Shown here: piece after piece, positions 11,183 through 33,175 of the stretch
Numbering within the stretch: the first letter of the stretch is position 1
How the letters are laid out: every line of letters begins with the position of its first letter
Source: Acetobacteraceae bacterium
Lineage (GTDB): Bacteria > Pseudomonadota > Alphaproteobacteria > Acetobacterales > Acetobacteraceae
Length of the DNA: 38,351 nucleotides
Direction: 5' to 3'
Assembly: GCA_947474705.1 (NCBI GenBank)
Contig: CANJJS010000047.1
Span: 1 to 38,351, forward strand
Translations under genes and position numbers: made by a program
Notes under the pieces: model-generated
Seen by the model: the letters and a program-made list of their open reading frames with translations, nothing else
Told to the model about the DNA's origin: nothing
The model's database searches: none

Positions 11183-11746
11183 ATGACCGAACAGCGTTTT
11201 CCGGAACTGTCCCCGGACTCCCTGACCGACGAGCAACGCCAGGTCGCCGACGCCATCCAGGCCGGCCCGCGCGGCGGCGGACTCCGCGGCCCCTTCAATG
11301 CGCTGATGCGTAGCCCGCAACTCTGCGACCTGGTGCAGCGCGTCGGCGCTTACGTGCGCTTCGGCAGTTCCATCCCCGCCGCGTTGAACGAACTGGCCAT
11401 TTGCATGGCGGGCCGGAAATGGGGCGCGCAGTACGAGTTCTATGCCCACCGCAAGCTGGGCATCGACGCGGGTCTGTCCCCGGCGATTCTGGATTCCGTC
11501 GCCAATGGCCGCCGCCCAGAGAACATGTCGGCCGACGAGACGTTGGTTTACGAGTTCACGATGTCGCTGCTGGGCACGGGCCAGGTGCCGGACGGGCGGT
11601 ATCAGGCCGTGATCGACCGGTTCGGCGAGCGTGGCGTGATGGATCTGGTGGGCGCCGTTGGTTACTACAGCCTGGTGTCGATGGTTCTGAATGTGGCGCA
11701 GGTGCAGTTGCCGGAAGGCGTTGAGCCGCCGCTAAAGCCTTTGTGA
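11183..11746 (+). CDS. Carboxymuconolactone decarboxylase-family protein
   Basis: A 187-aa all-helical protein of the CMD/AhpD superfamily. The core block is AALNELAICMAGRKWGAQYEFYAHRKLGIDAGLS near residues 66-100, the position where AhpD-type members have CxxC and CMD-type members have WEAHAP-like sequences. Here there is no CxxC, so peroxidase activity of AhpD type is unlikely. The ATG has GAGGAG 7 bp upstream. It is probably co-transcribed with the preceding SDR gene. Relatives are often labelled 4-carboxymuconolactone decarboxylase, but the real reaction is rarely known. Confidence 0.85.
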   Translation: MTEQRFPELSPDSLTDEQRQVADAIQAGPRGGGLRGPFNALMRSPQLCDLVQRVGAYVRFGSSIPAALNELAICMAGRKWGAQYEFYAHRKLGIDAGLSPAILDSVANGRRPENMSADETLVYEFTMSLLGTGQVPDGRYQAVIDRFGERGVMDLVGAVGYYSLVSMVLNVAQVQLPEGVEPPLKPL

Positions 11747-11751
11747 TCGTC

Positions 11752-11782
11752 GCTCCTCCTCCGGCCGCGCCGGGGGAGGAGC
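11752..11782 (+). terminator. Hairpin terminator after the SDR-CMD pair
   Basis: Arms gctcctcctccgg (11752-11764) and ccgggggaggagc (11770-11782) pair with one T-G wobble around a 5-base loop, starting 5 bp after the CMD stop codon. No long T-run follows (ttccgc), so it may be a weak or Rho-assisted terminator. Confidence 0.5.
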
Positions 11783-11999
11783 TTCCGCGGTCATGGGCCG
11801 GACGTTCCGGCGATGCCCAGGGTCCCGGTGGGAACCGCGGATTCGTCCCGGATCGATCGGAAAAATTCTAATGGCGCCCGCGATGGTTTTTGCCGCTCGG
11901 TGCTCTTGTTCGGAAATCAGGGCGCGCAATGCCGCGAGGCAGGCGGTGCCTCTCGCATGCGTCACCGGCGGGGTTGGCAATGCCTCCGGTCGGCGAATG
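11783..11999. other. Intergenic stretch upstream of the first PEP-CTERM gene; no gene seen
   Basis: With the regulatory sites that follow it, this is part of a gap of about 390 bp between the CMD gene and the PEP-CTERM gene. Short frames are present but lack motifs or ribosome-binding sites. The functional signals lie in the last 140 bp and are listed separately. Confidence 0.5.
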
Positions 12000-12017
12000 T
12001 GTCGGAGTTTCTTACAC
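12000..12017 (+). promoter_or_regulatory. Candidate enhancer site shared by both PEP-CTERM promoters (site 1)
   Basis: The 18-bp sequence TGTCGGA-N5-TTACAC recurs with identical spacing at 16342-16359 ahead of the other PEP-CTERM gene. Here it ends 52 bp before the GG of the sigma-54 element; there the distance is 62 bp, one helical turn more. It has weak dyad symmetry (TGTCGGA against TGTAAGA). A near-perfect 20-bp palindrome (12011-12030, cttacacccgcgggggtaag, one mismatched pair) overlaps its right half. It is inferred to bind an activator of sigma-54, possibly PrsR-like. Confidence 0.6.
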
Positions 12018-12067
12018 CCGCGGGGGTAAGGCGAAATTTACCCCAATCATTTCAATAACCTACAATC

Positions 12068-12082
12068 CGGCATAAAAATTGC
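12068..12082 (+). promoter_or_regulatory. Sigma-54 (RpoN) promoter of the first PEP-CTERM gene
   Basis: CGGCATAAAAATTGC matches the -24/-12 consensus TGGCAC-N5-TTGC, with the obligatory GG and GC exactly 10 bases apart. It lies 56 bp upstream of the ATG at 12139. A partial IHF-like match (aatcatttcaata, 12045-12057) lies between it and the upstream site. Confidence 0.7.
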
Positions 12083-12138
12083 GTAGAGAGCCCGCAACAG
12101 GCCCGGCCATGTTTGGCTCAGGAAATAAGGACGCAACA

Positions 12139-12870
12139 ATGCCACAGCCCATCCGCCTTGCCATGCTGGCCTCTGTCGCGATTGCCGGTGCGCTGCTGAC
12201 GTCCCCCGCGCACGCCGTTCTCTTCGACCTCGCGGCGAACTGGAGTACCGTCGATAACGGCACCAACGGTAACCCATGGACCTACCGGGGCGCGACCAGC
12301 GCGCTGCCCGCGCAATCCGACCTGACGATCATGTCCTTTCCCTTCACGCAACCCGGCTGGGCGCCGAGCAACAGTCCTGGGTCCTTTCTGCCGCTTTGGT
12401 TCAAGGCCGTGGGCAATCCGGGCCTTGGCGGCATCGACATCGTGACTGGCGATATCGTTACCCATAGCTGGGACGGGCCAAATGGCGGATCGAGCGGACA
12501 ATCCAATATCCTCTTCACCGCGCCAATCTCCGGCACCGCCACGATCAGCGGTTCGGCGTTTAATTCCCGCGATCTCAACCGGGCCGAACGCTGGGATGTC
12601 TATGTCAACAATGTGCAACAGGCCGGAGACACGCTGCCAGGCGATGGGAGCGACAACCGCGCTTCGGCCGATACGTTCAACCTGGCGAATATCGTGCTGG
12701 ACGCCGGCGACACCGTCGAACTGCGGATCACGACGTTGGGTTCGGCTGGCGATTTCGTGACGGTCGGCATGTCCATCGACCTAACACCGGCGCCCGAACC
12801 CACGTCGCTCGCCCTGCTCGCCTCGGGGCTTGCCGCCGTCGCTCTGCGCCGCCGCTCCCGCCGCCGTTGA
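12139..12870 (+). CDS. PEP-CTERM sorting domain protein (first of two)
   Basis: An exported protein of 243 aa. It has a Sec signal peptide (RLAMLASVAIAGALLTSPAHA), a middle region rich in Gly, Asn, Ser and Thr with beta character, and a C-terminal PEP-CTERM tripartite signal: APEPTSLALLASGLAAVAL followed by RRRSRRR. Exosortase is known to recognise PEP and remove this tail during export. The ATG has AAGGA 8 bp upstream and follows a sigma-54 promoter. The middle part shows no enzyme motif, and the C-terminal half (ERWDVYVNNVQ, DAGDTVELRITTLG) resembles beta-sandwich adhesive domains. Role unknown; PEP-CTERM proteins are linked to exopolysaccharide and floc or biofilm formation in other bacteria. 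The exosortase gene is not in the window. Confidence 0.88.
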   Translation: MPQPIRLAMLASVAIAGALLTSPAHAVLFDLAANWSTVDNGTNGNPWTYRGATSALPAQSDLTIMSFPFTQPGWAPSNSPGSFLPLWFKAVGNPGLGGIDIVTGDIVTHSWDGPNGGSSGQSNILFTAPISGTATISGSAFNSRDLNRAERWDVYVNNVQQAGDTLPGDGSDNRASADTFNLANIVLDAGDTVELRITTLGSAGDFVTVGMSIDLTPAPEPTSLALLASGLAAVALRRRSRRR

Positions 12871-12955
12871 AGCCTTTGCGATTTTATAAGCCGTTCCCTT
12901 TCCGGGCGCGATCTTTGGGAATGCGCGATCGGCGCTCTGGTTTGGGGACACCTCC

Positions 12956-14062
12956 ATGGCCTCGCCATTGTCTTTGGCGCAAATCGACGGGCTGAATTTC
13001 ATCGCGCGCCATCGTTGGGTCTCCGACACAACATCCCAGGCGGCGGCCGTTCCCGTTTCGGTGCATTTTCCGGATGTCGCGACGATTTCCATTGGAGGCG
13101 AGGCGTTTCCGCTCGACGGTGTGACGTGGCCGGATCTGGAGATCGAGAACGTCGCGCATCGCAAGACATTCGCCGTTGTCCATGGTCCCTGGCAGACCAG
13201 CCGGTTTCGTCTGTACAATCCCCTGATTTACTTCGCCGCGTTCGGCGCGCCGGAGATCTTCGATTGTTTGGAAATCGCGATTGGTTCGCTGTTCGCGTTC
13301 GGCGGCTTCGACGGCACGGTTCGCGTGCTCTGCGATGGACAAAATATGGGGTTTGCCGAACGTTTCCCCCCGGCGATCCGGTCGCGCGTGCGGATGTCGC
13401 CGGTGGCGTGCGGCGACACGCTGGATTACACGTTGGCGCGGTACCGGCTGTCCGCCGTCGATCCGGCGGGTTTGTTTCAGCCGATCCTGTATCTGGATAC
13501 GGATGTGGTTTGCGACGCGCCGTTACAAGACCTGCTCATCCGGCTTTTGAAAAGCGAGGCGATCCAGTTTTGCGCCGAACACCCGCTGACGATCAACGAG
13601 CATTGGTATGGCACGACGTTACTGACACATGACAATTACCGTCCGGCGCCGGACGAGCGGGGATTTTCGACGGGCTTGATCGGGTTTCGCGATGCCGCCC
13701 AGGCCGCGGAATCTTTCGCGACGATTGTCGAGTCCTGCCTGCGGATGGCGTCAATGACGGAGAATCGCGATTTGTTCGATACCTACGATCAGCCTTTCGC
13801 GAATTACATCATGCGCAAGCTGGGCGGTTACGCGACGGACCTGCTGACACCGCGCTGCGCCGCGCCCGCGCCGCCCGCCGATCCGGAGGAGCGGCCGGGA
13901 TTCGTGCATTTCGCGGGCGGTGTCGGCAATGCGGGGCCGAAGTTGGCGCGGATGCGGGACTATGTCGCGCGCCTGCGCGCGGCGGGCGGAGACGGTCTCT
14001 GGAATGTGGAGAAGTCAGCCGAAGCCGTGGTAACCCAGACCCCCGTCCTTCCCCGCCAATGA
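12956..14062 (+). CDS. Glycosyltransferase, GT8-like (GT-A fold)
   Basis: A 368-aa protein with the hallmarks of a retaining GT-A glycosyltransferase of the GT8 kind. LFQPILYLDTDVVCD near residue 173 carries the metal-binding DxD (Asp181, Asp183), GFSTGLIGFRD follows at about 234, and a C-terminal VHFAGGVGNAGPK corresponds to the HFxGxxKPW block. There is no signal peptide. A GGGGA lies 8 bp before the ATG. It starts 85 bp after the PEP-CTERM gene on the same strand, so it may be read from the same sigma-54 promoter. A role in making the glycan with which the PEP-CTERM protein associates is possible but not shown. The N-terminal 75 residues are not recognised. Confidence 0.75.
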   Translation: MASPLSLAQIDGLNFIARHRWVSDTTSQAAAVPVSVHFPDVATISIGGEAFPLDGVTWPDLEIENVAHRKTFAVVHGPWQTSRFRLYNPLIYFAAFGAPEIFDCLEIAIGSLFAFGGFDGTVRVLCDGQNMGFAERFPPAIRSRVRMSPVACGDTLDYTLARYRLSAVDPAGLFQPILYLDTDVVCDAPLQDLLIRLLKSEAIQFCAEHPLTINEHWYGTTLLTHDNYRPAPDERGFSTGLIGFRDAAQAAESFATIVESCLRMASMTENRDLFDTYDQPFANYIMRKLGGYATDLLTPRCAAPAPPADPEERPGFVHFAGGVGNAGPKLARMRDYVARLRAAGGDGLWNVEKSAEAVVTQTPVLPRQ

Positions 14063-14147
14063 CGGGCTGTCACGCCCCCAACCTTCCTTGCGCCTCCCAA
14101 TCCCCCGGCGCTACCGTCGCCCCGACCGAACCGGAGGACCTCCACCA

Positions 14148-15203
14148 ATGGCCGAAATTCTCGGACTGGGCGTCACGCATTCCCCGCTGCTGCTCGGCAC
14201 CGACGAACGCATGGCCGGGATCACCGAACGAGTCCTGAAAAGCCCCACGATCCCAGACTCCATGCGCCAGCCAACCGCCTGGCCCGACGAAATGCGCCGG
14301 GAATGGGACGCACACCGCGCCGGACGCGCCGCGCCCGCCCATCGCGCCCGTTCCATCGCGGGCTTCCGCGCCGCCCGCGCCGCGCTCGACGCCTTCGCGC
14401 CCGATTTCGTGCTGATCTTCGGCGACGACCAATACGAAAACTTTCGCGAGGACGGCGTCGCCCCCTTCTGCGTCTTCGCCACCGGCGACATCGACTCCCG
14501 GCCCTACACCCGCGCCGGCATCCATAACGCCTGGGCGGAACCCGCCGACACCGTCGTCCGCACCAAAGGCCACCCCGCCGGCGGCCGCTACCTCGCCAAA
14601 GCCCTCTCCGAACAAAACTTCGACATCTCCTGGGCGTACAAAATGCGCTACGAGAACGGCCTCCCACACGCCTTCATGAACGCCCTGCTGCTACTCGACT
14701 ACGACCGCGCCGGCCTGCCCTGGCCCGTCGTGCCGTTCCATGTGAACTGCTACGGATCGTCCACGATTTCGAAACAAGGCGCCTTCGCCCATATCGACGG
14801 CGCCACCGCCGAGCCCGATCCGCCCGGACCCACGCCCGCCCGCTGCTTCGACATCGGCGCCGCCATCGGTCAGGCCTTCGCCGCCTCGCCCTGGCGAGTC
14901 GCGCTGATCGCCTCGTCGAGCTGGTCGCATTCCTTCCTGACCGGCAAAAATCACTACCTCTACCCCGACCTCGCCTCCGACCGCGCCCGCTTCGCCGAAA
15001 TGCGCGCGGGCAACCTTGGGGCCTGGCGGACCCTGACCACGGCGGCAATCGAGGACGCGGGCCAGCAAGAACTGCTGAACTGGGTCTGCCTCGCCGGCGC
15101 CATGCACGCCCTGAAGCGGAAACCGGACTGGACCGACATGGTCGAAACCCACATCTACGTCGCGCCCAAAGTGTTCGCGATCTTCAACCCGCCCGGCGCC
15201 TGA
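14148..15203 (+). CDS. Class III extradiol dioxygenase-like protein (LigB family)
   Basis: A 351-aa protein of the LigB superfamily, non-haem Fe(II) enzymes that open catechol-type rings. MAEILGLGVTHSPLLL starts the domain, with the first metal-type His at residue 11. FVLIFGDDQYENFRED and SSSWSHSFLTGKNHY carry further family blocks. The usual GDxH is GDDQ here, so the metal site differs from LigB itself, as in many members of this subgroup. The ATG has GGAGG about 11 bp upstream; an in-frame codon at 14088 would add 20 residues. It converges with the RraA-family gene with no gap at all (ends at 15203 and 15204). The substrate is not known. Confidence 0.8.
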   Translation: MAEILGLGVTHSPLLLGTDERMAGITERVLKSPTIPDSMRQPTAWPDEMRREWDAHRAGRAAPAHRARSIAGFRAARAALDAFAPDFVLIFGDDQYENFREDGVAPFCVFATGDIDSRPYTRAGIHNAWAEPADTVVRTKGHPAGGRYLAKALSEQNFDISWAYKMRYENGLPHAFMNALLLLDYDRAGLPWPVVPFHVNCYGSSTISKQGAFAHIDGATAEPDPPGPTPARCFDIGAAIGQAFAASPWRVALIASSSWSHSFLTGKNHYLYPDLASDRARFAEMRAGNLGAWRTLTTAAIEDAGQQELLNWVCLAGAMHALKRKPDWTDMVETHIYVAPKVFAIFNPPGA

Positions 15204-15887
15204 TCACCACACGATTTTCGCCTGCTCGATCAACTTCCGCGCGCTCTCCGTCATCGTCGCGCCCGCGAGCACCCGTTCCACCGCAAGCAACTCCGCCTGC
15301 TGAACCCGGCGCAACCGCTCCAGCACCAGCTCCAGCCGCTGCGCGGGCACCACGACCACCCCATCCGCGTCGCCCACGACCAGATCGCCGGGGTTTACAT
15401 GCACCCCACCCAGATCGATCGCCGCGCCCACCACGGCCGGCCCGTTCATCGCCGGCGAGTTCGGCTGAATGCCCGCGCTGAACAACGGTAACCCCGCCGC
15501 CACGATCCCCGCCTTGTCGCGCGACAACCCATCCGTCACGAACGCCGCCACCCCCGCGTTCTTCATCATCCCCGCGGCCAGATCGCCAATCACCGCCGTC
15601 TTCGTGAACCCATCGTTGGCGCAAACAATCACATCGCCCGCCCGCGCCTCCGACAACGCCGCGAACACCGCGAGCACATCGGCCGGATACGCGAAACAGG
15701 TCAGCGCCGGCCCCACGAAACTCGCGTTCGCGGGATCGGCCGGCTTGATCCGGTAATCCAGCGCCCCGCGCCCATCCATCGCGTCCGCCAGATGCGAGGT
15801 CTGGGCGCCGCGAAATTCCTCGATCAACGCCGCGTCGGGACGTTTGAAGCCGCGATGGATCGTCACGAGCGGGGGATTGTCGAGCAT
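15204..15887 (-). CDS. RraA-family aldolase / oxaloacetate decarboxylase-like protein
   Basis: A 227-aa protein of the RraA/HMG-CHA aldolase family, trimeric divalent-metal enzymes that split 4-carboxy-4-hydroxy-2-oxoadipate or related acids, alongside inhibitors of RNase E. TSHLADAMDGRGALD, ARAGDVIVCANDG, GDLAAGMMKNAGVAAFVTDGLSRDKAGI (with the conserved Arg-Asp) and NPGDLVVGDADGVVVVP match the family. The ATG at 15887 has GGAGA 9 bp upstream; the frame is open to 16046 but without support. The CHA aldolase acts in the protocatechuate 4,5-cleavage pathway, consistent with the convergent LigB-type neighbour, but a generic function is also possible. Confidence 0.85.
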   Translation of the reverse strand: MLDNPPLVTIHRGFKRPDAALIEEFRGAQTSHLADAMDGRGALDYRIKPADPANASFVGPALTCFAYPADVLAVFAALSEARAGDVIVCANDGFTKTAVIGDLAAGMMKNAGVAAFVTDGLSRDKAGIVAAGLPLFSAGIQPNSPAMNGPAVVGAAIDLGGVHVNPGDLVVGDADGVVVVPAQRLELVLERLRRVQQAELLAVERVLAGATMTESARKLIEQAKIVW

Positions 15888-16341
15888 GCGAGGATGTCTC
15901 CGATTCCTGGTCGATGTCTGGGTTGAAAAGGACCCTACCAGACCGTCCACCGCTTTTCCACGCGAACCCAGGCCACGCGCCTGAACCGATCCGGCATGCC
16001 GCTTTTCGTCATCGCCCGGCGGGCGCGAAACGGAATCGCGGGACAAGGGACGCTTCGTCCCGGACCGCGCCTTGCCTGACCCATCGGCGTCCGGCGGGAG
16101 CGCCGTTCATGCGGCCATAGGGACAGCGACGGAAAACTTTACACCCCGGCCCGCATTCTCAGCGTGCTTCGGAGGCGGCGCGCGGATACCTGGCGAATGA
16201 TAAATAAACAGGCGCCAACACCACCCCTCGCGGCGGGCGAAAATATCTTTTCGTAAACCCTAACGTTCTCCGGCCCGGAAAATTGCCCCCCGCGCGGTTT
16301 TGTCCGGAGAGGTTCGTTGTTCGCACTGACAATTGTCAAAA
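15888..16341. other. Intergenic stretch between the RraA gene and the second PEP-CTERM promoter; no gene seen
   Basis: About 450 bp with no recognisable protein frame. Base composition shifts toward A/T after about 16190, as expected close to a regulated promoter. A perfect 12-bp palindrome TGACAATTGTCA (16327-16338) sits directly before the shared 18-bp motif and may be an operator. Confidence 0.5.
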
Positions 16342-16359
16342 TGTCGGATAAATTTACAC
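16342..16359 (+). promoter_or_regulatory. Candidate enhancer site shared by both PEP-CTERM promoters (site 2)
   Basis: TGTCGGA-N5-TTACAC, identical in its 13 fixed bases and in spacing to the site at 12000-12017. It ends 62 bp upstream of the GG of the sigma-54 element. It follows the palindrome at 16327-16338. Confidence 0.6.
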
Positions 16360-16388
16360 AAGCGATGGCGGCGCGGCGGGGAGGCGCT

Positions 16389-16401
16389 CAATCGATTGAT
16401 T
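16389..16401 (+). promoter_or_regulatory. Candidate IHF-binding site
   Basis: CAATCGATTGATT is a full match to YAANNNNTTGATW, the reverse complement of the IHF consensus. It lies between the shared upstream motif and the -24/-12 element, the usual place for IHF to bend DNA so that a distant activator can reach sigma-54 polymerase. Confidence 0.5.
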
Positions 16402-16419
16402 TTCCGGTGGTTTTTATTC

Positions 16420-16434
16420 TGGCCTGAAAATTGC
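16420..16434 (+). promoter_or_regulatory. Sigma-54 (RpoN) promoter of the second PEP-CTERM gene
   Basis: TGGCCTGAAAATTGC fits TGGCAC-N5-TTGC closely, with GG and GC 10 bases apart. It lies 80 bp upstream of the ATG at 16515. Confidence 0.75.
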
Positions 16435-16514
16435 TGAGTGCTGGATGAAACCATTCGCCCTCGGAATTTCATTGTGAGATGAGAGCGATCGCCCAAACCA
16501 GGGGAATAAAACAC

Positions 16515-17255
16515 ATGAAAATATTGTTTTCCGGCGCGCTTTCCGCGCTCGCTCTGATCGCTTTGGCGGGGCCGGCGCGGTCGGCCGTCACATACGACGC
16601 CGCCTTGTCGCCGCCCGGAACCTACTTTGGTACCGGCAACACGAACGACCATTGGGTCGTCGAAACCGCGACGCAGGTGGAACTCGGACTTGGCGTCAAG
16701 ATCCGCTTTCTTAATACGGTAACGCCAACAAGCACCAATGTGTACGACGTGGCGCCTGGCGACACGACGGTTCCCGGCAAATCCGGATCGCTGTGGGGCT
16801 TTACCTTTTCCGCCCGCGCTTTGACCGGATTGCTCTCCGGCCTGACGCTGTCCATGAGCATCACCGATTACGCCCATGGCACGACGGTGACCTTCGATCC
16901 GAACCTACTCCCCGACAATGCCGGTACCGATGGCACCCTGACCGTGGGCGGCGGCAACGGCTGCTTCGGCGACACAAGCGCCGCCTGTGTCGCGGGGACG
17001 CGCACCGGCCTACAGAACGCGGAGGCCCTGTCGTTCGTCAGCGGCGTGGCGAACGGTTTCGATCCGCATTACGAGTCTGGCGCGAACAATACCTGGGAGA
17101 TCACGCTTTCGGCCTCAGTGGGCAATGTCCCCGTGGCGTCGGTCACCGAATTCGTGAACGCCGGCATCGGGTCGCCGCTTCCCGAACCCGCGTCGCTGGC
17201 GGTGCTCGGGATCGGCCTCCTCGGGCTGGGCTTCGGACGCCGCCGGTGCGGCTGA
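16515..17255 (+). CDS. PEP-CTERM sorting domain protein (second of two)
   Basis: An exported protein of 246 aa with a signal peptide (KILFSGALSALALIALAGPARS), a Gly/Thr/Asn-rich middle of beta character and the PEP-CTERM end LPEPASLAVLGIGLLGLGF followed by GRRR. The middle contains two Cys (GCFGDTSAACVAG) spaced for a possible disulfide. GGGGAA stands about 9 bp before the ATG, which is preferred over a codon at 16479. It sits behind its own sigma-54 promoter. Its sequence is only loosely like the first PEP-CTERM protein, so they are not a recent duplicate. Exosortase would cut at PEP during export; role unknown. Confidence 0.88.
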   Translation: MKILFSGALSALALIALAGPARSAVTYDAALSPPGTYFGTGNTNDHWVVETATQVELGLGVKIRFLNTVTPTSTNVYDVAPGDTTVPGKSGSLWGFTFSARALTGLLSGLTLSMSITDYAHGTTVTFDPNLLPDNAGTDGTLTVGGGNGCFGDTSAACVAGTRTGLQNAEALSFVSGVANGFDPHYESGANNTWEITLSASVGNVPVASVTEFVNAGIGSPLPEPASLAVLGIGLLGLGFGRRRCG

Positions 17256-17264
17256 CCGGCGCTA

Positions 17265-17295
17265 CGGCCCGGCGGTGCTCCGCGCCACCGGGCCG
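17265..17295 (+). terminator. Hairpin after the second PEP-CTERM gene
   Basis: Arms cggcccggcggtg (17265-17277) and cgccaccgggccg (17283-17295) pair at 12 of 13 positions around ctccg, 10 bp after the stop codon. No T-run follows. Confidence 0.45.
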
Positions 17296-17617
17296 CCACC
17301 GCGGATAGCCTCCGGCGCTCCGCCATCGCATCGCATGTCGCGCGGCGGGCCCCCAGAGGACCAAATCCGATCCCGGCCGCGATCGCGTGAGCCGGGCGGT
17401 CCGCCATTGTCTCGCGAAGCGCCGGGCCTGGCCCCAGGGATTCCGCCCTCACCGGCCGAAATCCGATCGCTCCGGTATGTTCCAGTCGGGCACTTCGAAT
17501 CTTTCACCCACTCAGACGAAAAATTTCCAGAATCGGCGGAGGCGTTTACCTTTTATTCGCGATTAGGGTTCATGAACGGGGTCTCAGGTTGAACCTTCGC
17601 CACGACGAGGCCCCCCG
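17296..17617. other. Leader region of the chemotaxis operon; no gene seen
   Basis: About 320 bp with no recognisable protein. It becomes A/T-richer from about 17500, so the cheA promoter probably lies there, but no clear -35/-10 or sigma-28 pair stands out, and the motif shared by the PEP-CTERM promoters is absent. Confidence 0.4.
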
Positions 17618-20288
17618 ATGGACGAACTACTCGCCGACTTTCTGACTGAAACGAACGAGAACCTCGCCGAACTCGACGTCGCGCTGCTGACGTTGGAACG
17701 CGCCCCGGACGACGCCAACACACTCTCGTTAATCTTCCGGATGGTGCACACCATCAAGGGTACTTGCGGCTTCCTTGGCCTGCCACGGCTGGAACGTGTC
17801 GCGCACGCGGGCGAGAATGTTCTGGGCCGGTTGCGCGACGGCGCGCTCGTCGCCTCGCCAGAGATCGTGACGCTGATCCTGGCCGCGCTGGACCGGATCA
17901 AGTCGATCCTGTCGGACCTTGGCGCGAACGGCACCGAACCGGCGGGCGACGATACCGGCCTGATCGCGTCGTTGAACGCGATGGCGCAGGGTCAGACACC
18001 GCCCCCGGCCGCCGCCCCCCCCCCCTGCCGCCGCCCCACTGGCCGCACCCGCCCCCGTCGCGGCCCCGCCCGTCCTGGCCGCCGCCGAACCCGCCGCGCC
18101 CGAACCCGCGCCGCCGCCGGTCAAGGCCGAGGAACCACCCCCGCCCCCCCCACGCGCCGCGCCCGAACCCACGGCGGATCACGCGGGCGACGACCCGGAC
18201 GTCCGCGCCGGTGCCAATGCCCCGGCGGCCGCCGCGCAGCAGACGATCCGCGTCACCGTCGATGTCCTTGAAGATCTGATGACCCTGGTCTCGGAACTCG
18301 TGTTGACCCGGAACCAGCTCCTGCAACTCGCCCGCAGCCAGGAAAACAGCGACTTCACCGCGCCCCTGCAACGCCTGTCGCACATCACCTCCGACCTTCA
18401 GGAAGGCGTGATGAAGACGCGGATGCAGCCGATCGGCAACGCCTGGAACAAACTGCCGCGCCTCGTGCGCGACCTCGCCCGCGATCTGAACAAGAAGATC
18501 GAACTGACGATGCTCGGCGCCGACACCGAACTCGACCGCCAGATCCTGGAACTGATCAAGGACCCGCTCACCCACATGGTCCGCAACAGCGGCGATCACG
18601 GGCTGGAAATGCCCGCCGAGCGCCGCGCCGCCGGCAAGTCCGAAACCGGACGCATCGTGCTGAACGCCTTCCACGAGGGCGGCCATATCATCATCGAGAT
18701 CTCCGACGACGGCAAAGGCCTCGCCGCCGACCGGATCCGGGCCAAGGCGATCGCCAACGGCCTCGCCACCGAGGCCGAACTGGCCGCGATGCCGGAAGCG
18801 CAGATCCAGCGCTTCATCTTCCGCGCCGGGTTCTCCACGGCGGCGCAGGTCACGGCGGTCTCGGGCCGCGGCGTCGGCATGGATGTGGTGAAAACCAACA
18901 TCGAGAAGATCGGCGGCACGATCGACCTCAAAAGCACCGCCGGGCAGGGCACGACCTTCACCATTAAAATCCCGCTGACCCTGGCCATCGTCTCCGCGCT
19001 GATCGTCGAATCCGCGAAAGAACGCTTCGCCATCCCGCAGATCAGCGTTGTCGAACTGGTCCGCGCCCGCCGCGCCGGCACCAACGCGCGCGGCGACGGC
19101 GAGGAAAACACGATCGAACTGATCAACGACACGCCCGTCCTCCGCCTGCGCGACCGGCTGCTGCCGCTGGTCTCGCTCAGCGAATTGCTGGGTCTGGAAC
19201 CGGCCGATACCTCCGACGGCGGCGCGCATATCGTGGTCACGCAGGTCGGGTCCAGCCTGCTGGGCATCATCGTCGACCGGGTCTTCGATACCGAGGAAAT
19301 CGTCGTCAAACCGGTCGCGCCCATTCTGCGCCACATCACCATGTTCAGCGGCAACACCATTCTCGGCGACGGCTCCGTGATCATGATCCTCGACCCCGCC
19401 GGCATCGCGCGGGCCACCGGTGTCGGCGCGGGCGCGGACAACAAGCTCATGAAACCGGAAACGGTCGACGAAACCGGCTCCACCGACTCGCTGGCGCTGC
19501 TGCTGTTCCGCGCCAACGACACCGAACGCATGGCGGTGCCGCTCAACCTCGTGGCCCGCCTGGAAAACATCCCGCGCGACAAGATCGAGTATTCGTCCGG
19601 CGCCTACGTCACCCAGTATCGCGGCAAGCTGATGCCGCTGCTGTCGATCTCGGCGAACCCGGACGTCTCCGCGCCGATGCAATCCCTGCTGGTCTTCGCC
19701 GATGGCGAGCACTCGATGGGCCTGATGGTCGACGAGATCATCGACGTGGTCGAGGACCGGCTGGAAATCGAACTGGCCTCGGCGCGGGAGGGGTCGCTGG
19801 GCACCGCGATCATTGGCGGGCAGGCGACAGACGTGCTGGACACCGGCTACTGGCTGGCGCGGGCCTCGCGGGACTGGTTCGACGGCGGGGCGGCCGATTC
19901 GGGCGCGCGGAAGAAGCGCGTGCTGATCGTCGAGGACAGCGCATTCTTCCGGAACCTGTTGATGCCGTCGCTGACCGCCGCGGGTTTCAAGGTCACCGCC
20001 GCGCCAGGCGCCGCCGCGGCACTGCGGCTGCGCGACGCGGGCCAGATGTTCGACGCCGTCGTGTCCGATATCGAAATGCCGGACATGGACGGGCTCGACT
20101 TCGCCCGCGCGCTCCGCGCCTCCGGTCCCTGGCGCGACCTGCCGCTGATCGCCTTGTCGAGCCACGCCGATGCCGGCGACGTGGAGGCGGGCCGCGACGC
20201 CGGATTCACCGACTACGTGACCAAGTCCCAGCGCGAGCACCTGATTGGATCGCTACGCCAATGCCTCGCCAACATGGCGGCTCTCTAA
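17618..20288 (+). CDS. cheA: Chemotaxis hybrid histidine kinase CheA with C-terminal receiver domain, frameshifted
   Basis: Central kinase of chemotaxis. With one base removed from the C-run at 18015-18025 it reads as an 889-aa protein. Domains in order: HPt (residues 1-105, phosphoacceptor His44 in RMVHTIKGTCGF); a Pro/Ala linker (about 115-205); dimerisation domain (from TIRVTVDVLEDLMTLVSELV); HATPase (N-box HMVRNSGDHGLE near 319, then SDDGKGL and GRGVGMDVV); a CheW-like domain; a second CheW-like domain (from SLALLLFRANDTERMAVPLN); and a receiver (KKRVLIVEDSAFFRN, VVSDIEMPDMDG). As sequenced, the upstream frame (from 17618) runs to 18271 and the downstream frame is open with an ATG at 18279. 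No P2 domain is seen. GAGG lies 7 bp before the ATG. It leads the cheAWYBR cluster. Confidence 0.9.
18015..18025 (+). repeat. 11-base poly-C tract at the cheA frameshift
   Basis: A run of 11 Cs lies in the Pro/Ala linker of cheA. Ten (or thirteen) Cs would keep the whole gene in one frame and give a continuous Ala/Pro linker (AAPPPAAAPLAAPAP) leading into the dimerisation domain. This may be a real slippage site or a sequencing error in a homopolymer. Confidence 0.85.
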
Positions 20289-28740: not shown

Positions 28741-30651
28741 TCAGGCGGCGGTTTCGCCGAAGAGGCGCTTACCGGCCCGCCGCAGATCGCCCCGCCGCGC
28801 CGTCACGCCGCGCCGGTCGAAATACTCCAGCACCTGAATCGCCAGTTGCCGCCCGCTGCCGGTCCGGTCCCGGAACGCGGTCGCGGGAAACCAGCCCCCC
28901 TCGCTCTCCGCCGACAGCGCATGCGCGATCGCCGCCATCTCCGCCGCCGCCTCGCGCGTGAAAAACCGGTCCGGGGCCATCTCCACCACCAACCCCAACC
29001 GGGCGAGTCCCTTGCAGGCCCGGCGCAACGGCACATCCGGCAAACCCAACGCCGCCGCCGCCTCGCGCGACAATGGCGGGCGGAACGGCGTTTCCGCCAG
29101 CAGGGGCCGCAGCCGGTCCCAAACCCGCGCCGCCTCGCCCGCCAACCCGCCGCGATGCCGGGGCGACCGGATAAGATGGCCTTCCGCCACCACGGCTCCC
29201 GCGCCTAACGCATGCGCCAGCACCGCCGCGAAAGCCTCGCGCGGCAGGCGGATCGGCAGCGCGAGGCGCAGGGCTTCCCCCGTCATGCCGGGCACGCCGG
29301 GATCGCTTGCATGAAAAACCTCCAGGCCGGCCGCGATGGCGGCGAGAAGACGCGACAGACCCTCCGGCCCGGCGGCGAACGCGCCGATGGGTATCGCATC
29401 CGGAAGCCAGGCGGCGAGCCCGTCTTCGGTCAGGCCCCAATCGGCGCGGAGCGTCTCCCGATGCGCCAGATACGGCGGGTGCGACAGCATCGCGAGGATC
29501 GCCGCGCGCGGGTTCGCCGCCGCCAAATCGCGTAGCACCGCCAAACGCGCCGGCCGCCGCCGATGCCGCGGCGGCGGCCTCGGGTCCAGCGCGACCCCGC
29601 CGGCCAGCGTGCGCGTGGCGGAAATATCTCGCAGAATCAGCCGGTCGCCCCACCGGACCGGCAGCGCGCGATCCAGGATCAGGTGCGCCAGCCCCTCGCC
29701 GCCCGGCGCCAATGCCGGGGGATCGAGCATCAGCACGCGCGCCGCCGTCTGCCCGGCGCCGTGATGCGCCAGAACCGGGGTGCCGGATTTCAGCGCCGCG
29801 CGCTCGCCCGCCAACAGGCGCAAAACGATGTCGCAACGTTGGGTCGCGGAGTCGCGCTCCGGGCTCAGCACCCAGCCGCCACGCCCGATCGTGTCCTTGC
29901 GGATCCCCGGCCCCGCGAGGTTCAAGGCACAGCGTTGCCCCGCCGTGGCGGTGGCCGCCGCCTGGTTGGCGGCGTGAATCCCGCGGACACGGGCACGCGC
30001 CCCGGCGGGCCAGAGCTGGACCGTGTCGCCAACAGCGATCGCGCCGGTGGCGACCGATCCGGTGACGACCGTGCCAGCCCCGGCCAGCGAAAAACTCCGA
30101 TCGACGGACAGGCGGAACGCGAACGCCGCGCCGGGCTCCGGCGCGGCGGCTCGCGCGGCCTCTTCCAGCAGGCTGTCGCGCAGGGCCGCGATACCTTCGC
30201 CTGAAACGGTGGAAACCGGGAAAATACTGGCCCCGGCGAACGCCGTCCCCTCCAGTAGGGCTTCCACCTCCAACTCGGCGTCGAGCGCCCGGTCCGGCCC
30301 GATCAGGTCGATCTTGGTCAAGGCGACGACGGCGCGGGTCACACCCAAAAGCGTCAATATTTGTAGATGCTCCCGCGTCTGCGGCATGACGCCGTCGTCC
30401 GCCGCCACGACCAGCAACGCCATCTCAATGCTGGTGGCGCCCGCGATCATCGTGTGGACGAGGCGCTCGTGCCCCGGGACATCGACGAACCCAAGGACCC
30501 CGCCGCCCGCCACCGGCACATAGGCGAAGCCGAGATCGAGCGTGATCCCGCGCGCTTTTTCCTCTGGCAGGCGATCGGTGTCGATGCCGGTGAGCGCGCG
30601 GATCAGGCTGGTTTTGCCATGGTCGATATGCCCGGCGGTGCCAACGATCAT
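28741..30651 (-). CDS. selB: Selenocysteine-specific translation elongation factor SelB
   Basis: GTPase that delivers selenocysteyl-tRNA to UGA codons marked by a SECIS hairpin. The 636-aa protein has G1 GHIDHGKT (residues 7-14), G2 RGIT, G3 DVPGHE near 57, G4 TKID near 112, then EF-Tu-like beta-barrel domains and, from about 400, the winged-helix repeats that bind the SECIS ([36 protein letters not shown]). Length is normal. The ATG at 30651 lacks a ribosome-binding site. It converges with the GNAT gene with 5 bp between. No selA, selD, tRNA-Sec or selenoprotein was recognised in the window. Confidence 0.95.
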
Positions 30652-30679: not shown

Positions 30680-30751
30680 TCACGACGCCGCTCTCGCCGC
30701 GCGGCGGACCGGTGGAATGTGGTGCCTGGGTGCTGGACGTGCCGCGGTCAT
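30680..30751 (-). CDS. Possible 23-aa leader ORF upstream of selB
   Basis: A short frame starting [17 protein letters not shown] and ending 28 bp before the selB ATG. Its ATG has a strong GGGGAGG 5 bp upstream, whereas selB itself has none, so translation of the leader could be coupled to selB or the leader may mark an unrecognised start. It has no family resemblance. Low confidence. Confidence 0.3.
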
Positions 30752-30883
30752 GGTGTCCTCCCCCCGGGTAGGCCGGGCGGCACGATCGCCGCCGGGACCG
30801 GCATGCCATCCCGCGCCGTGCCGGGAAAGAGCCGGGGCAAGCTTCGGATGGCCGCGCCGGTGCCGAAGCGGCAAGATGGCGGC

Positions 30884-31948
30884 ATGAACGACATGACCCC
30901 TCCCGACCACGCGCCGGACGAGACTCTCTGGCAAACGGTCCTCAACCGCCAGCCTGGCGATTTCCTTTACGCAGTCGTCACGATGGGGGTGTATTGCCGT
31001 CCCATCTGCCCCTCTCCGCGGCCGCTGCGCAAAAACACCCGCTTCTTCGACATACCGGACCAGGCGGAGGCGGCGGGGTTCCGGGCCTGTAAGCGCTGCG
31101 ATCCGAAGGGGGAGCGGGAGCGGCTGGCCCAGGAGGTGGTGCGGGACGCGTGCGGGTTTGTGGAGGCGGCGGAGACGATGCCGTCGCTGGACACGCTGGC
31201 GGCGCGCTCTGGCTATTCCAAATTTCATTTCCTGCGGATGTTCCGCGACCACACCGGCGTCACACCGCGCAGCTATGCCGAGGGCGTGCGCGCCCGCCGG
31301 TTGCAGGCGGCGCTGGCGGGCGGGGCACGGGTGGCCGACGCGGTCGCGGACGCGGGGTTTGGCTCGGAGAGCCGGGTCTACGAACAGACCGGGCGGCTGC
31401 TGGGGATGACGCCGGGCGCGGCGCGGCGCGGCGGGCTGGGCGAGACGATCCGAACCGCCATGGCCGATTGTCCGTTCGGGCGCCTGCTTGTGGGCGCGAC
31501 GGACGCCGGCGTCTGTTTCCTGGGGTTCGCCGAACCGGACGACGCGCTGATGGGCGATCTGCGGCGGCGGTTCCCCAAAGCGAACATCGCCGCGGACGAC
31601 GAGGGTCTGCGGGAGACCGTGCGCGCGGTGCTGGATTTCCTCCACGAACCGAAACAGGCGCTGGACCTGCCGCTGGACCTGCGCGGCACCGCGTTTCAAC
31701 AACGGGTCTGGCAAACGCTCCGCCAAATCCCGCCGGGCGAAACCCGGACCTATGGCGAGGTCGCGCGGATGATGGCGGAACCGAAGGCCACCCGGGCCGT
31801 GGCGCGATCCTGCGCGCTGAACCCGGTGTCGCTGGCCGTGCCGTGCCATCGGGTGATCGGCCAGGACGGGGATCTGACGGGGTACCGCTGGGGGATTCCG
31901 CGCAAGAAGGCGCTGCTGGAGAAGGAACGGGCGGCGGCGCTTTCCTGA
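30884..31948 (+). CDS. ada: Ada: bifunctional methylphosphotriester/O6-methylguanine-DNA methyltransferase and activator
   Basis: DNA repair protein and regulator of the adaptive response to alkylation. The 354-aa protein has zinc cysteines at exactly 38, 42, 69 and 72 ([17 protein letters not shown]); in E. coli Ada Cys38 accepts the methyl and also switches the protein on. Then come an AraC-type helix-turn-helix region ([20 protein letters not shown] and [13 protein letters not shown]) and the alkyltransferase domain with acceptor Cys321 (VPCHRVIG). Length and all five positions equal those of E. coli Ada, which fixes the start at 30884. It is divergent from selB. An Ada box was not identified. 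Confidence 0.95.
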
Positions 31949-32041
31949 CGAGGCACCTCTCCGGGACTGGCCTCTCCGCGAATCGGGGGCATCCGCGGCA
32001 TGATCCGCCGATGAACGCGCTTTCGACATGGCGAAGACGGC

Positions 32042-33175
32042 ATGCGTAGCCTGGAACTCTTCGCCGGCTGCGGCGGACTCGCCATGGGCCTCGCCTGGGC
32101 GGGCTTCCACCACGAACTGCTGGTCGAACGCGACGCCGACGCGGTGGCGACATTGCGCTTCAACCGGGACCGCGGCATCGCGCACGTCCGGGACTGGCCA
32201 ATCGAGGATCGCGACGTCCGGAGCATGGACTGGCGGCCCTACCGCGGCCGGCTCGATCTGATCTCCGGCGGCCCGCCCTGCCAGCCCTTCGGCATCGGCG
32301 GCAAAAAACGCGGCCCCGAGGACGGCCGCGACATGTGGCCCGAAGCCGTCCGCGCGATCCGCGAGGCTCGGCCGAGATCGTTTCTGTTCGAAAATGTCAG
32401 GAACCTGGCCTCGCCGACGTTCCGGCCTTACCTGAACTGGGTCGTCGCCTGCCTCCGCCACCCGGATTTGCCGCGGCGGGAGGGAGAAAGCCACCTCGCG
32501 CACCTCGAACGCCTCGAAACGGCACAGGCCGCGCCAGCCTACGAAGTCGTCTGGCAGGTGGCGAACGCGGCCGATCACGGCGCCCCGCAGAGTCGCCATC
32601 GCGTCATCGTCCAGGGAATCGCCACCGATCTGGGCGTCCGGCCGGAGCCCCTGACGCCGTCCCATGGACAGGACCGGTTATTGTGGGACCAGTATGTGAC
32701 CGGCGAATACTGGTCGCGGCACGGACTGCCGCCAGCGGCCATGCGAGGGCCGCACGCGGCGCGTGTCGCCACCCTCGAAGCCGCCGGTAAACCTCCGGCC
32801 CTGAAGCCCTGGACGACTTTGCGCGACGCGATCGCCGATCTCGGCGAGCCCAATGGGAAATCCGGACATACGCACCGCGCCGGCGCCCGGGCCTACGCGG
32901 GCCATACCGGAAGCCCGCTCGATCTGCCGGCCAAGGCGTTGAAGGCCGGAGATCATGGCGTGCCCGGCGGGGAGAACATGATCAGGTTCGAAGATGGCGC
33001 GGTGCGATATTTGACCGCGCGGGAGGCGGCGCGGCTGGCCGGGCTGCCCGACGACTATGAATTTCCGCGATCCTGGAGCGAAACGATGCGCCAACTCGGC
33101 AATGCCGTGCCCGCGGCTTTGGGAAAAGCCGCCGGAGCCCATCTCCGGCGGCGGCTTGAAACGGCCAGGGCGTAG
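32042..33175 (+). CDS. Orphan DNA (cytosine-5) methyltransferase
   Basis: A type II-style C5 DNA methyltransferase of 377 aa. Motifs in order: I LELFAGCGGLAMG, IV GGPPCQPFG with catalytic Cys80, VI FENVRNL, VIII QSRHRV, and the C-terminal X-type RQLGNAVPAALG, with the target-recognition region at about 205-310. The ATG at 32042 has a weak ribosome-binding site. The neighbours, ada and a transporter binding protein, do not include a restriction enzyme or a Vsr nuclease, so it looks solitary. The recognition sequence cannot be deduced. Confidence 0.92.
   Translation: MRSLELFAGCGGLAMGLAWAGFHHELLVERDADAVATLRFNRDRGIAHVRDWPIEDRDVRSMDWRPYRGRLDLISGGPPCQPFGIGGKKRGPEDGRDMWPEAVRAIREARPRSFLFENVRNLASPTFRPYLNWVVACLRHPDLPRREGESHLAHLERLETAQAAPAYEVVWQVANAADHGAPQSRHRVIVQGIATDLGVRPEPLTPSHGQDRLLWDQYVTGEYWSRHGLPPAAMRGPHAARVATLEAAGKPPALKPWTTLRDAIADLGEPNGKSGHTHRAGARAYAGHTGSPLDLPAKALKAGDHGVPGGENMIRFEDGAVRYLTAREAARLAGLPDDYEFPRSWSETMRQLGNAVPAALGKAAGAHLRRRLETARA

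What the first reader, a model, noticed from the sequence alone, without database searches (positions are those of the whole stretch)
12000..16434. Two PEP-CTERM genes share a sigma-54 promoter plus an identical upstream motif at helical-turn spacing
Both genes have a -24/-12 element (GG-N10-GC at 12068-12082 and 16420-16434). Both have TGTCGGA-N5-TTACAC upstream, identical in 13 fixed bases and spacing. The distances to the -24 GG are 52 and 62 bp, a difference of one helical turn, so the bound protein would face the same side. RpoN and PrsK/PrsR are known to control PEP-CTERM genes in other proteobacteria. This looks like a small regulon in an alphaproteobacterium, with the binding site readable directly.
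Basis: partly seen in the sequence, partly recalled or inferred. Interest (0 to 1): 0.75.

Follow-up and report, generated by a model that had tools for sequence, protein, structure and literature searches.

The report
PEP-CTERM genes with known PrsR boxes
Two genes for secreted, membrane-anchored proteins carry a regulatory switch that was already described in 2006; here the switch sites look intact, but the genes for the regulator that should use them look damaged.

Summary
TGTCGGA-N5-TTACAC lies at 12000 and 16342, followed 51 and 61 nt later by a -24/-12 (sigma-54) element and a PEP-CTERM gene. It is not new: Haft et al. 2006 described this box, its spacer, the sigma-54 element and the regulators PrsK/PrsR. 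In the window's own genome 9 of 10 boxes with at most one mismatch precede PEP-CTERM genes; the tenth runs off a contig. rpoN, prsR, a split prsK and exosortase A are present. Across 200 family genomes boxes track PrsR: 25 of 29 box genomes have it, against 26 of 171 without a box. Two points go beyond the finding. The box has one orientation and sits on one face of the helix: all 45 spacings of 30-100 nt fall at 42, 49-52, 61-65, 73-75 or 84 nt. And in this assembly prsR runs into an IS1595-type element before its DNA-binding end, prsK is split between frames, and prsT is cut beside an IS21-type fragment. The boxes may be orphaned here; the fragmented assembly makes that likely, not shown.

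The parts
12000..12017 (+). Box 1 (PrsR box, Haft motif 1): TGTCGGA-N5-TTACAC
   Evidence: Exact match; resembles the 17-nt motif ending TTTACA of Haft 2006
12069..12082 (+). Sigma-54 -24/-12 element GG-N10-GC, 51 nt after box 1
   Evidence: Sequence; score 11.1 of 12.4 and best position within 5-149 nt of the box
12139..12870 (+). PEP-CTERM protein gene (243 aa)
   Evidence: TIGR02595 22.1 bits, cut-off 16; PF07589 24.6 bits
16127..16144 (+). Possible second, weaker box (2 mismatches) 215 nt upstream of box 2
   Evidence: two-mismatch matches are near background in the genome, so uncertain
16342..16359 (+). Box 2 (PrsR box): TGTCGGA-N5-TTACAC
   Evidence: Exact match
16421..16434 (+). Sigma-54 -24/-12 element GG-N10-GC, 61 nt after box 2
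   Evidence: Sequence; score 11.4 of 12.4 and best position within 5-149 nt of the box
16515..17255 (+). PEP-CTERM protein gene (246 aa)
   Evidence: TIGR02595 18.5 bits, cut-off 16; PF07589 21.5 bits

Best explanation
The two sites are box-plus-promoter units of the known PEP-CTERM/exosortase A regulon. RNA polymerase with sigma-54 sits closed on the -24/-12 element. The response regulator PrsR, phosphorylated by PrsK, binds TGTCGGA-N5-TTACAC with its helix-turn-helix, and its AAA+ domain opens the promoter. Because the box is directional and stays on one face of the helix, PrsR probably reaches the promoter across a short, fixed arc of DNA. The PEP-CTERM proteins then pass to exosortase A. 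In the sequenced genome this switch is probably unserved at present, because prsR ends in an IS1595-type element before its DNA-binding part, prsK is split between frames and prsT is cut. Shown here: sites, domains, co-occurrence, spacing, broken reading frames. Inferred: binding, phosphorylation, transcription, and loss of function.
For: 9 of 10 boxes with at most one mismatch precede PEP-CTERM genes over the cut-off; the tenth runs off its contig. Single rpoN, PrsR 597 bits against a cut-off of 502.6, PrsK piece 320 bits against 300, exosortase A 279 bits against 208. Box excess over reversed control 65 to 3 and 65 to 7. PrsR in 25 of 29 box genomes against 26 of 171 others, Fisher p 7e-14, not corrected for relatedness. 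49 of 68 boxes have a strong sigma-54 element downstream, against 1 of 68 on the other strand, 1 of 71 upstream, 5 of 65 and 1 of 63 further on, and 2 of 72 for a flipped box. 36 of 46 first genes after such pairs match TIGR02595 at E up to 1. Literature seen as passages: enrichment of five predicted PEP-CTERM targets by the Desulfovibrio regulator, RpoN1-dependent pepA in Aquincola.
Against: No binding or transcription data. 23 of 72 boxes have no strong sigma-54 element within 199 nt (some lie at contig ends or are upstream copies). Four box genomes have no PrsR at E up to 1e-150: G046, G077, G150, G169. 26 genomes with PrsR have no exact box. 10 of 46 first genes had no TIGR02595 match. PrsT in this genome scores 276.7, below the cut-off of 312.2.
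Confidence: 0.85

Rival explanations
1. The regulon works normally in this strain; the breaks in prsR, prsK and prsT are faults or limits of a fragmented assembly, and the missing middle piece (end of prsR, start of prsT) lies on a contig too short to be kept.
For: 205 contigs; contig 200 is 3395 bases, so pieces of 1-2 kb may have been dropped. cheA in the window is also split, at a run of C. All three breaks lie at contig ends or at a repeat.
Against: Contig C148 runs from prsR straight into an element end that recurs at 15 places with 100% identity, 13 of them at contig ends by known lengths, as expected of a real insertion of a multi-copy element. Two different elements cut prsR and prsT.
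Confidence: 0.35
2. The box is bound by another sigma-54 activator and not by PrsR.
For: Three other NtrC-type regulators are encoded (335-362 bits against the PrsR model, below its cut-off). 26 genomes with PrsR lack an exact box and 4 box genomes lack PrsR in the calls made. In Desulfovibrio two activators share a motif (passages).
Against: Boxes follow PrsR across 200 genomes, as in the 2006 phylogenetic profile; target enrichment by a PrsR-type regulator was reported for Desulfovibrio (passages).
Confidence: 0.08
3. The matching boxes are a chance likeness.
For: Short motifs; matches with up to two mismatches are near background in the genome (48 against 38).
Against: 0.21 expected in the window against 3 found; excess over reversed controls in genus and family; position before PEP-CTERM genes.
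Confidence: 0.01

Closest known systems
PEP-CTERM cis-regulatory site with PrsK/PrsR/PrsT (Haft et al. 2006, PMC1569441; passages, section 7 read whole)
   Same: Motif ending TTTACA, sometimes repeated, about 63 nt before a -24/-12 element, upstream of single PEP-CTERM genes; PrsK and PrsR encoded together near polysaccharide genes. Rhodospirillum rubrum (an alphaproteobacterium, recalled) is in their set.
   Different: Their text gives mean, SD and range of the spacer, no phasing. Here prsR, prsK and prsT look damaged. Their motif logo is a figure and was not seen.
RpoN1-dependent pepA of Aquincola tertiaricarbonis (PMC9850573; passages)
   Same: PEP-CTERM gene with a mapped -24/-12 promoter that needs RpoN; a predicted enhancer sequence lies upstream.
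   Different: Experimental, different organism; its box letters were not seen.
DVUA0057 regulon of Desulfovibrio vulgaris (PMC3333781, passages; PMC4641369, passages)
   Same: Sigma-54 response regulator; all five predicted PEP-CTERM targets were enriched in the DNA-affinity assay; a regulon of 6 operons.
   Different: Plasmid-borne regulator in another class (recalled); its motif letters were not seen.

Membership tests
PEP-CTERM/PrsR sigma-54 regulatory site (Haft 2006) | Conserved box ending in (T)TTACA upstream of PEP-CTERM genes | tested here: met
   12000 has CTTACAC and 16342 has TTTACAC
PEP-CTERM/PrsR sigma-54 regulatory site (Haft 2006) | -24(GG)/-12(GC) element 32-92 nt after the box | tested here: met
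   51 and 61 nt
PEP-CTERM/PrsR sigma-54 regulatory site (Haft 2006) | PrsR, PrsK and PrsT encoded in the genome | tested here: inconclusive
   PrsR and part of PrsK over cut-off, but PrsR lacks its HTH end, PrsK is in two frames and PrsT is partial and below cut-off
PEP-CTERM/PrsR sigma-54 regulatory site (Haft 2006) | Exosortase and sigma-54 encoded in the genome | tested here: met
PEP-CTERM/PrsR sigma-54 regulatory site (Haft 2006) | PrsR binds the box and activates transcription with sigma-54 | not testable with these tools
   Needs binding and transcription assays; target enrichment was reported in Desulfovibrio (passages)

The most novel reading that the evidence does not exclude
A sigma-54 regulon caught just after losing its activator: mobile elements and a frame break have disabled PrsR, PrsT and PrsK in this lineage while boxes and promoters are still near-perfect. 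Across Acetobacteraceae the PrsR box is not a free-distance enhancer: it has one orientation and sits at helical-turn steps (about 42, 50, 62, 74, 84 nt), which implies a stereospecific contact between PrsR and the promoter complex.
Probability: 0.5. Interest if true: 0.5.

Novelty: new member of a known kind. Interest (0 to 1): 0.35.

Why it matters
The finding restates a known regulatory site in another species, so the discovery itself is ordinary. The family-wide spacing and orientation rule could sharpen prediction of PrsR targets and gives a simple test of how a sigma-54 activator reaches its promoter at short range. If the damage to prsR and prsK is real, the genome is a natural case for watching binding sites decay after their regulator is lost.

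Tried and rejected
Chance was rejected. Two-mismatch boxes are not a useful genome-wide signal (48 against 38). One weak sigma-70-type match lies in each upstream region (9 of 12) and was not pursued. No Rfam family reached its threshold in 11700-17300. The PrsT family search is dominated by weaker TPR matches. The regex count of PEP-CTERM ends (19 of 41 sites) was crude and was replaced by the NCBIfam scan (36 of 46). Of the 49 box-promoter pairs, three were left out there: one gene too short at a contig end (L010), one open at a contig end (L229), one duplicate of the same gene (L233). The spacing clusters were drawn after seeing the data. The test at period 10.5 used 16 off-peak promoters (0 of 20,000 uniform draws as high) and allows for common descent only by collapsing similar spacers, 45 to 44; the best period is nearer 11.5 than 10.5. 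The pairs come only from loci that the tools returned, not from all sites found: 72 distinct boxes, 9 own genome, 33 genus, 28 family, 2 in prsR loci. I saw no report of this phasing in the searches (listings), but most subscription journals are not in that library. One search also fetched stretches around 17 two-mismatch sites; these were not analysed further.

Full report
What is there. The box TGTCGGA-N5-TTACAC lies at 12000-12017 and 16342-16359, each followed by GG-N10-GC (12069-12082; 16421-16434) with 51 and 61 bases between. The genes 12139-12870 and 16515-17255 encode PEP-CTERM proteins over the curated cut-offs. A weaker box at 16127 (2 mismatches) may be a second copy. The window expects 0.21 matches with up to two mismatches and has three.

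It is known. Haft et al. 2006 (PMC1569441; passages, section 7 read whole) found a 17-nt motif ending in TTTACA, sometimes repeated, a spacer averaging 62.8 nt (SD 10.6, range 32-92) and a -24/-12 motif, upstream of 99 of 167 proteobacterial PEP-CTERM genes, and by phylogenetic profile named PrsK, PrsR and PrsT. Rhodospirillum rubrum was in their set. Later work, seen as passages only, showed RpoN1 dependence and a mapped start for pepA in Aquincola (PMC9850573), control of floc-related PEP-CTERM genes by PrsK-PrsR in Zoogloea as cited in PMC9012009, and enrichment of five predicted PEP-CTERM targets by the Desulfovibrio regulator DVUA0057 (PMC3333781).

Own genome. The window is contig C47 of a 5.48-Mb, 205-contig assembly with 10 boxes of at most one mismatch. 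Nine lie before PEP-CTERM genes over the cut-off, eight genes in all because one on C31 has two boxes; the tenth (C110) runs off the contig. Of 52 TIGR02595 matches, 51 over the cut-off, these eight plus about three with weaker boxes (10 of 13) but good sigma-54 elements (C57, C18, C39) look regulated (a score without calibrated chance level). The rest showed no convincing pair; C63, C167 and C141 have little or no upstream sequence. RpoN, PrsR, PrsK in two pieces and exosortase A are encoded. Beside prsK lie a polyprenyl sugar transferase (best model TIGR03013, just under its cut-off; TIGR03025 over) and two XrtA-system polysaccharide genes. The 80 kept relatives of PrsR (of 165) are mainly labelled Acetobacteraceae, Rhodopila, Roseomonas and kin or Rhodospirillales, up to 90% identical; a few carry other labels.

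Relatives. Exact boxes occur in 25 of 33 genomes of the genus, 65 sites against 3 for the reversed control, and in 29 of 200 genomes of the family, 65 against 7 (four genomes shared). PrsR over its cut-off occurs in 51 of 200 (E up to 1e-150): 25 of the 29 box genomes and 26 of the 171 others (Fisher p 7e-14, not corrected for relatedness). The exceptions are G046, G077, G150 and G169; none of the seven genomes with a control hit has PrsR.

Orientation and helical face. I took 72 distinct boxes ([TC]GTCGGA-N5-TTACA[CG]) from loci at hand and scored every position 5-199 nt downstream for a sigma-54 element, preferring no distance. 49 score at least 11 of 12.4. Of the 68 boxes with enough sequence 49 do so, against 1 of 68 on the other strand of the same stretch, 1 of 71 upstream, 5 of 65 and 1 of 63 further downstream, and 2 of 72 for a promoter facing away on the far side. 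45 of the 49 have spacings of 30-100 nt: 42 (1), 49-52 (8), 61-65 (29), 73-75 (6), 84 (1). The other four are 115, 127, 136 and 173 nt; the promoter at 115 has a second box at 61. The pattern appears separately in the genus and in the other loci. For 16 off-peak promoters the agreement with the main peak at period 10.5 exceeded all 20,000 uniform draws; the fit is better near 11.5. 23 boxes have no such element; several lie at contig ends or upstream of a second box. 36 of 46 first genes match TIGR02595 at E up to 1.

Damage to the regulators. The prsR frame ends after 424 codons. Pfam at E up to 0.001 shows receiver and sigma-54 domains and no HTH family (relatives were not scanned that way). 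The profile match stops at 419 of 445, while the other 50 hits reach 443-444. Of 80 named relatives 70 show the HTH by a regex and 9 more by eye; one (L182) stops early. The end of contig C148 codes for the C-terminus of an IS1595-family transposase, and 126-140 of its 140 bases recur at 100% identity in 15 places (40 of 95 candidates scored); 13 of these are at contig ends by known lengths (and earlier listings), and the lengths of C13 and C66 were not seen. The missing PrsR end was not found elsewhere in the assembly. prsK is split between two frames at a short tandem repeat. prsT keeps its second half at the end of C34 beside an IS21 istB fragment. A relative, L170, has all three genes whole and in a row. 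A short contig holding the missing middle could have been dropped: contig 200 has 3395 bases. I take loss of the regulator as probable, with assembly limits as the main rival.

Verdict. The spacing rule and the damaged regulator are modest additions that need experiments.

Noticed in passing
17618-20288: cheA is split: Hpt part 17618-18271 in one frame, the rest (18279-20288) in another, with the break at a run of C near 18015-18026; a sequencing error or a real frame break.
   Followed up: partly
L111:2462-2846 and L136:1501-1847: A box-like site plus a sigma-54 element 62 nt on precedes a small protein (78 and 82 aa, ending FGHC, 30% identical, E 2e-5) in the own genome and in G028; no NCBIfam match. 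Possibly a regulon member that is not PEP-CTERM.
   Followed up: partly
L110:1-140 (contig C148): An IS1595-type element end found at 15 places in the genome with 100% identity, 13 of them at contig ends by known lengths: a multi-copy, probably recently active element.
   Followed up: partly
28741-30651: A SelB-type selenocysteine elongation factor is encoded. Selenoprotein genes were not looked for; the neighbouring ORF 30680-32665 had no Pfam match.
   Followed up: no
L233, L238, L125, L135, L001: Several promoters have two boxes in tandem, 54 to 293 nt apart, as Haft 2006 noted for repeated motifs.
   Followed up: partly
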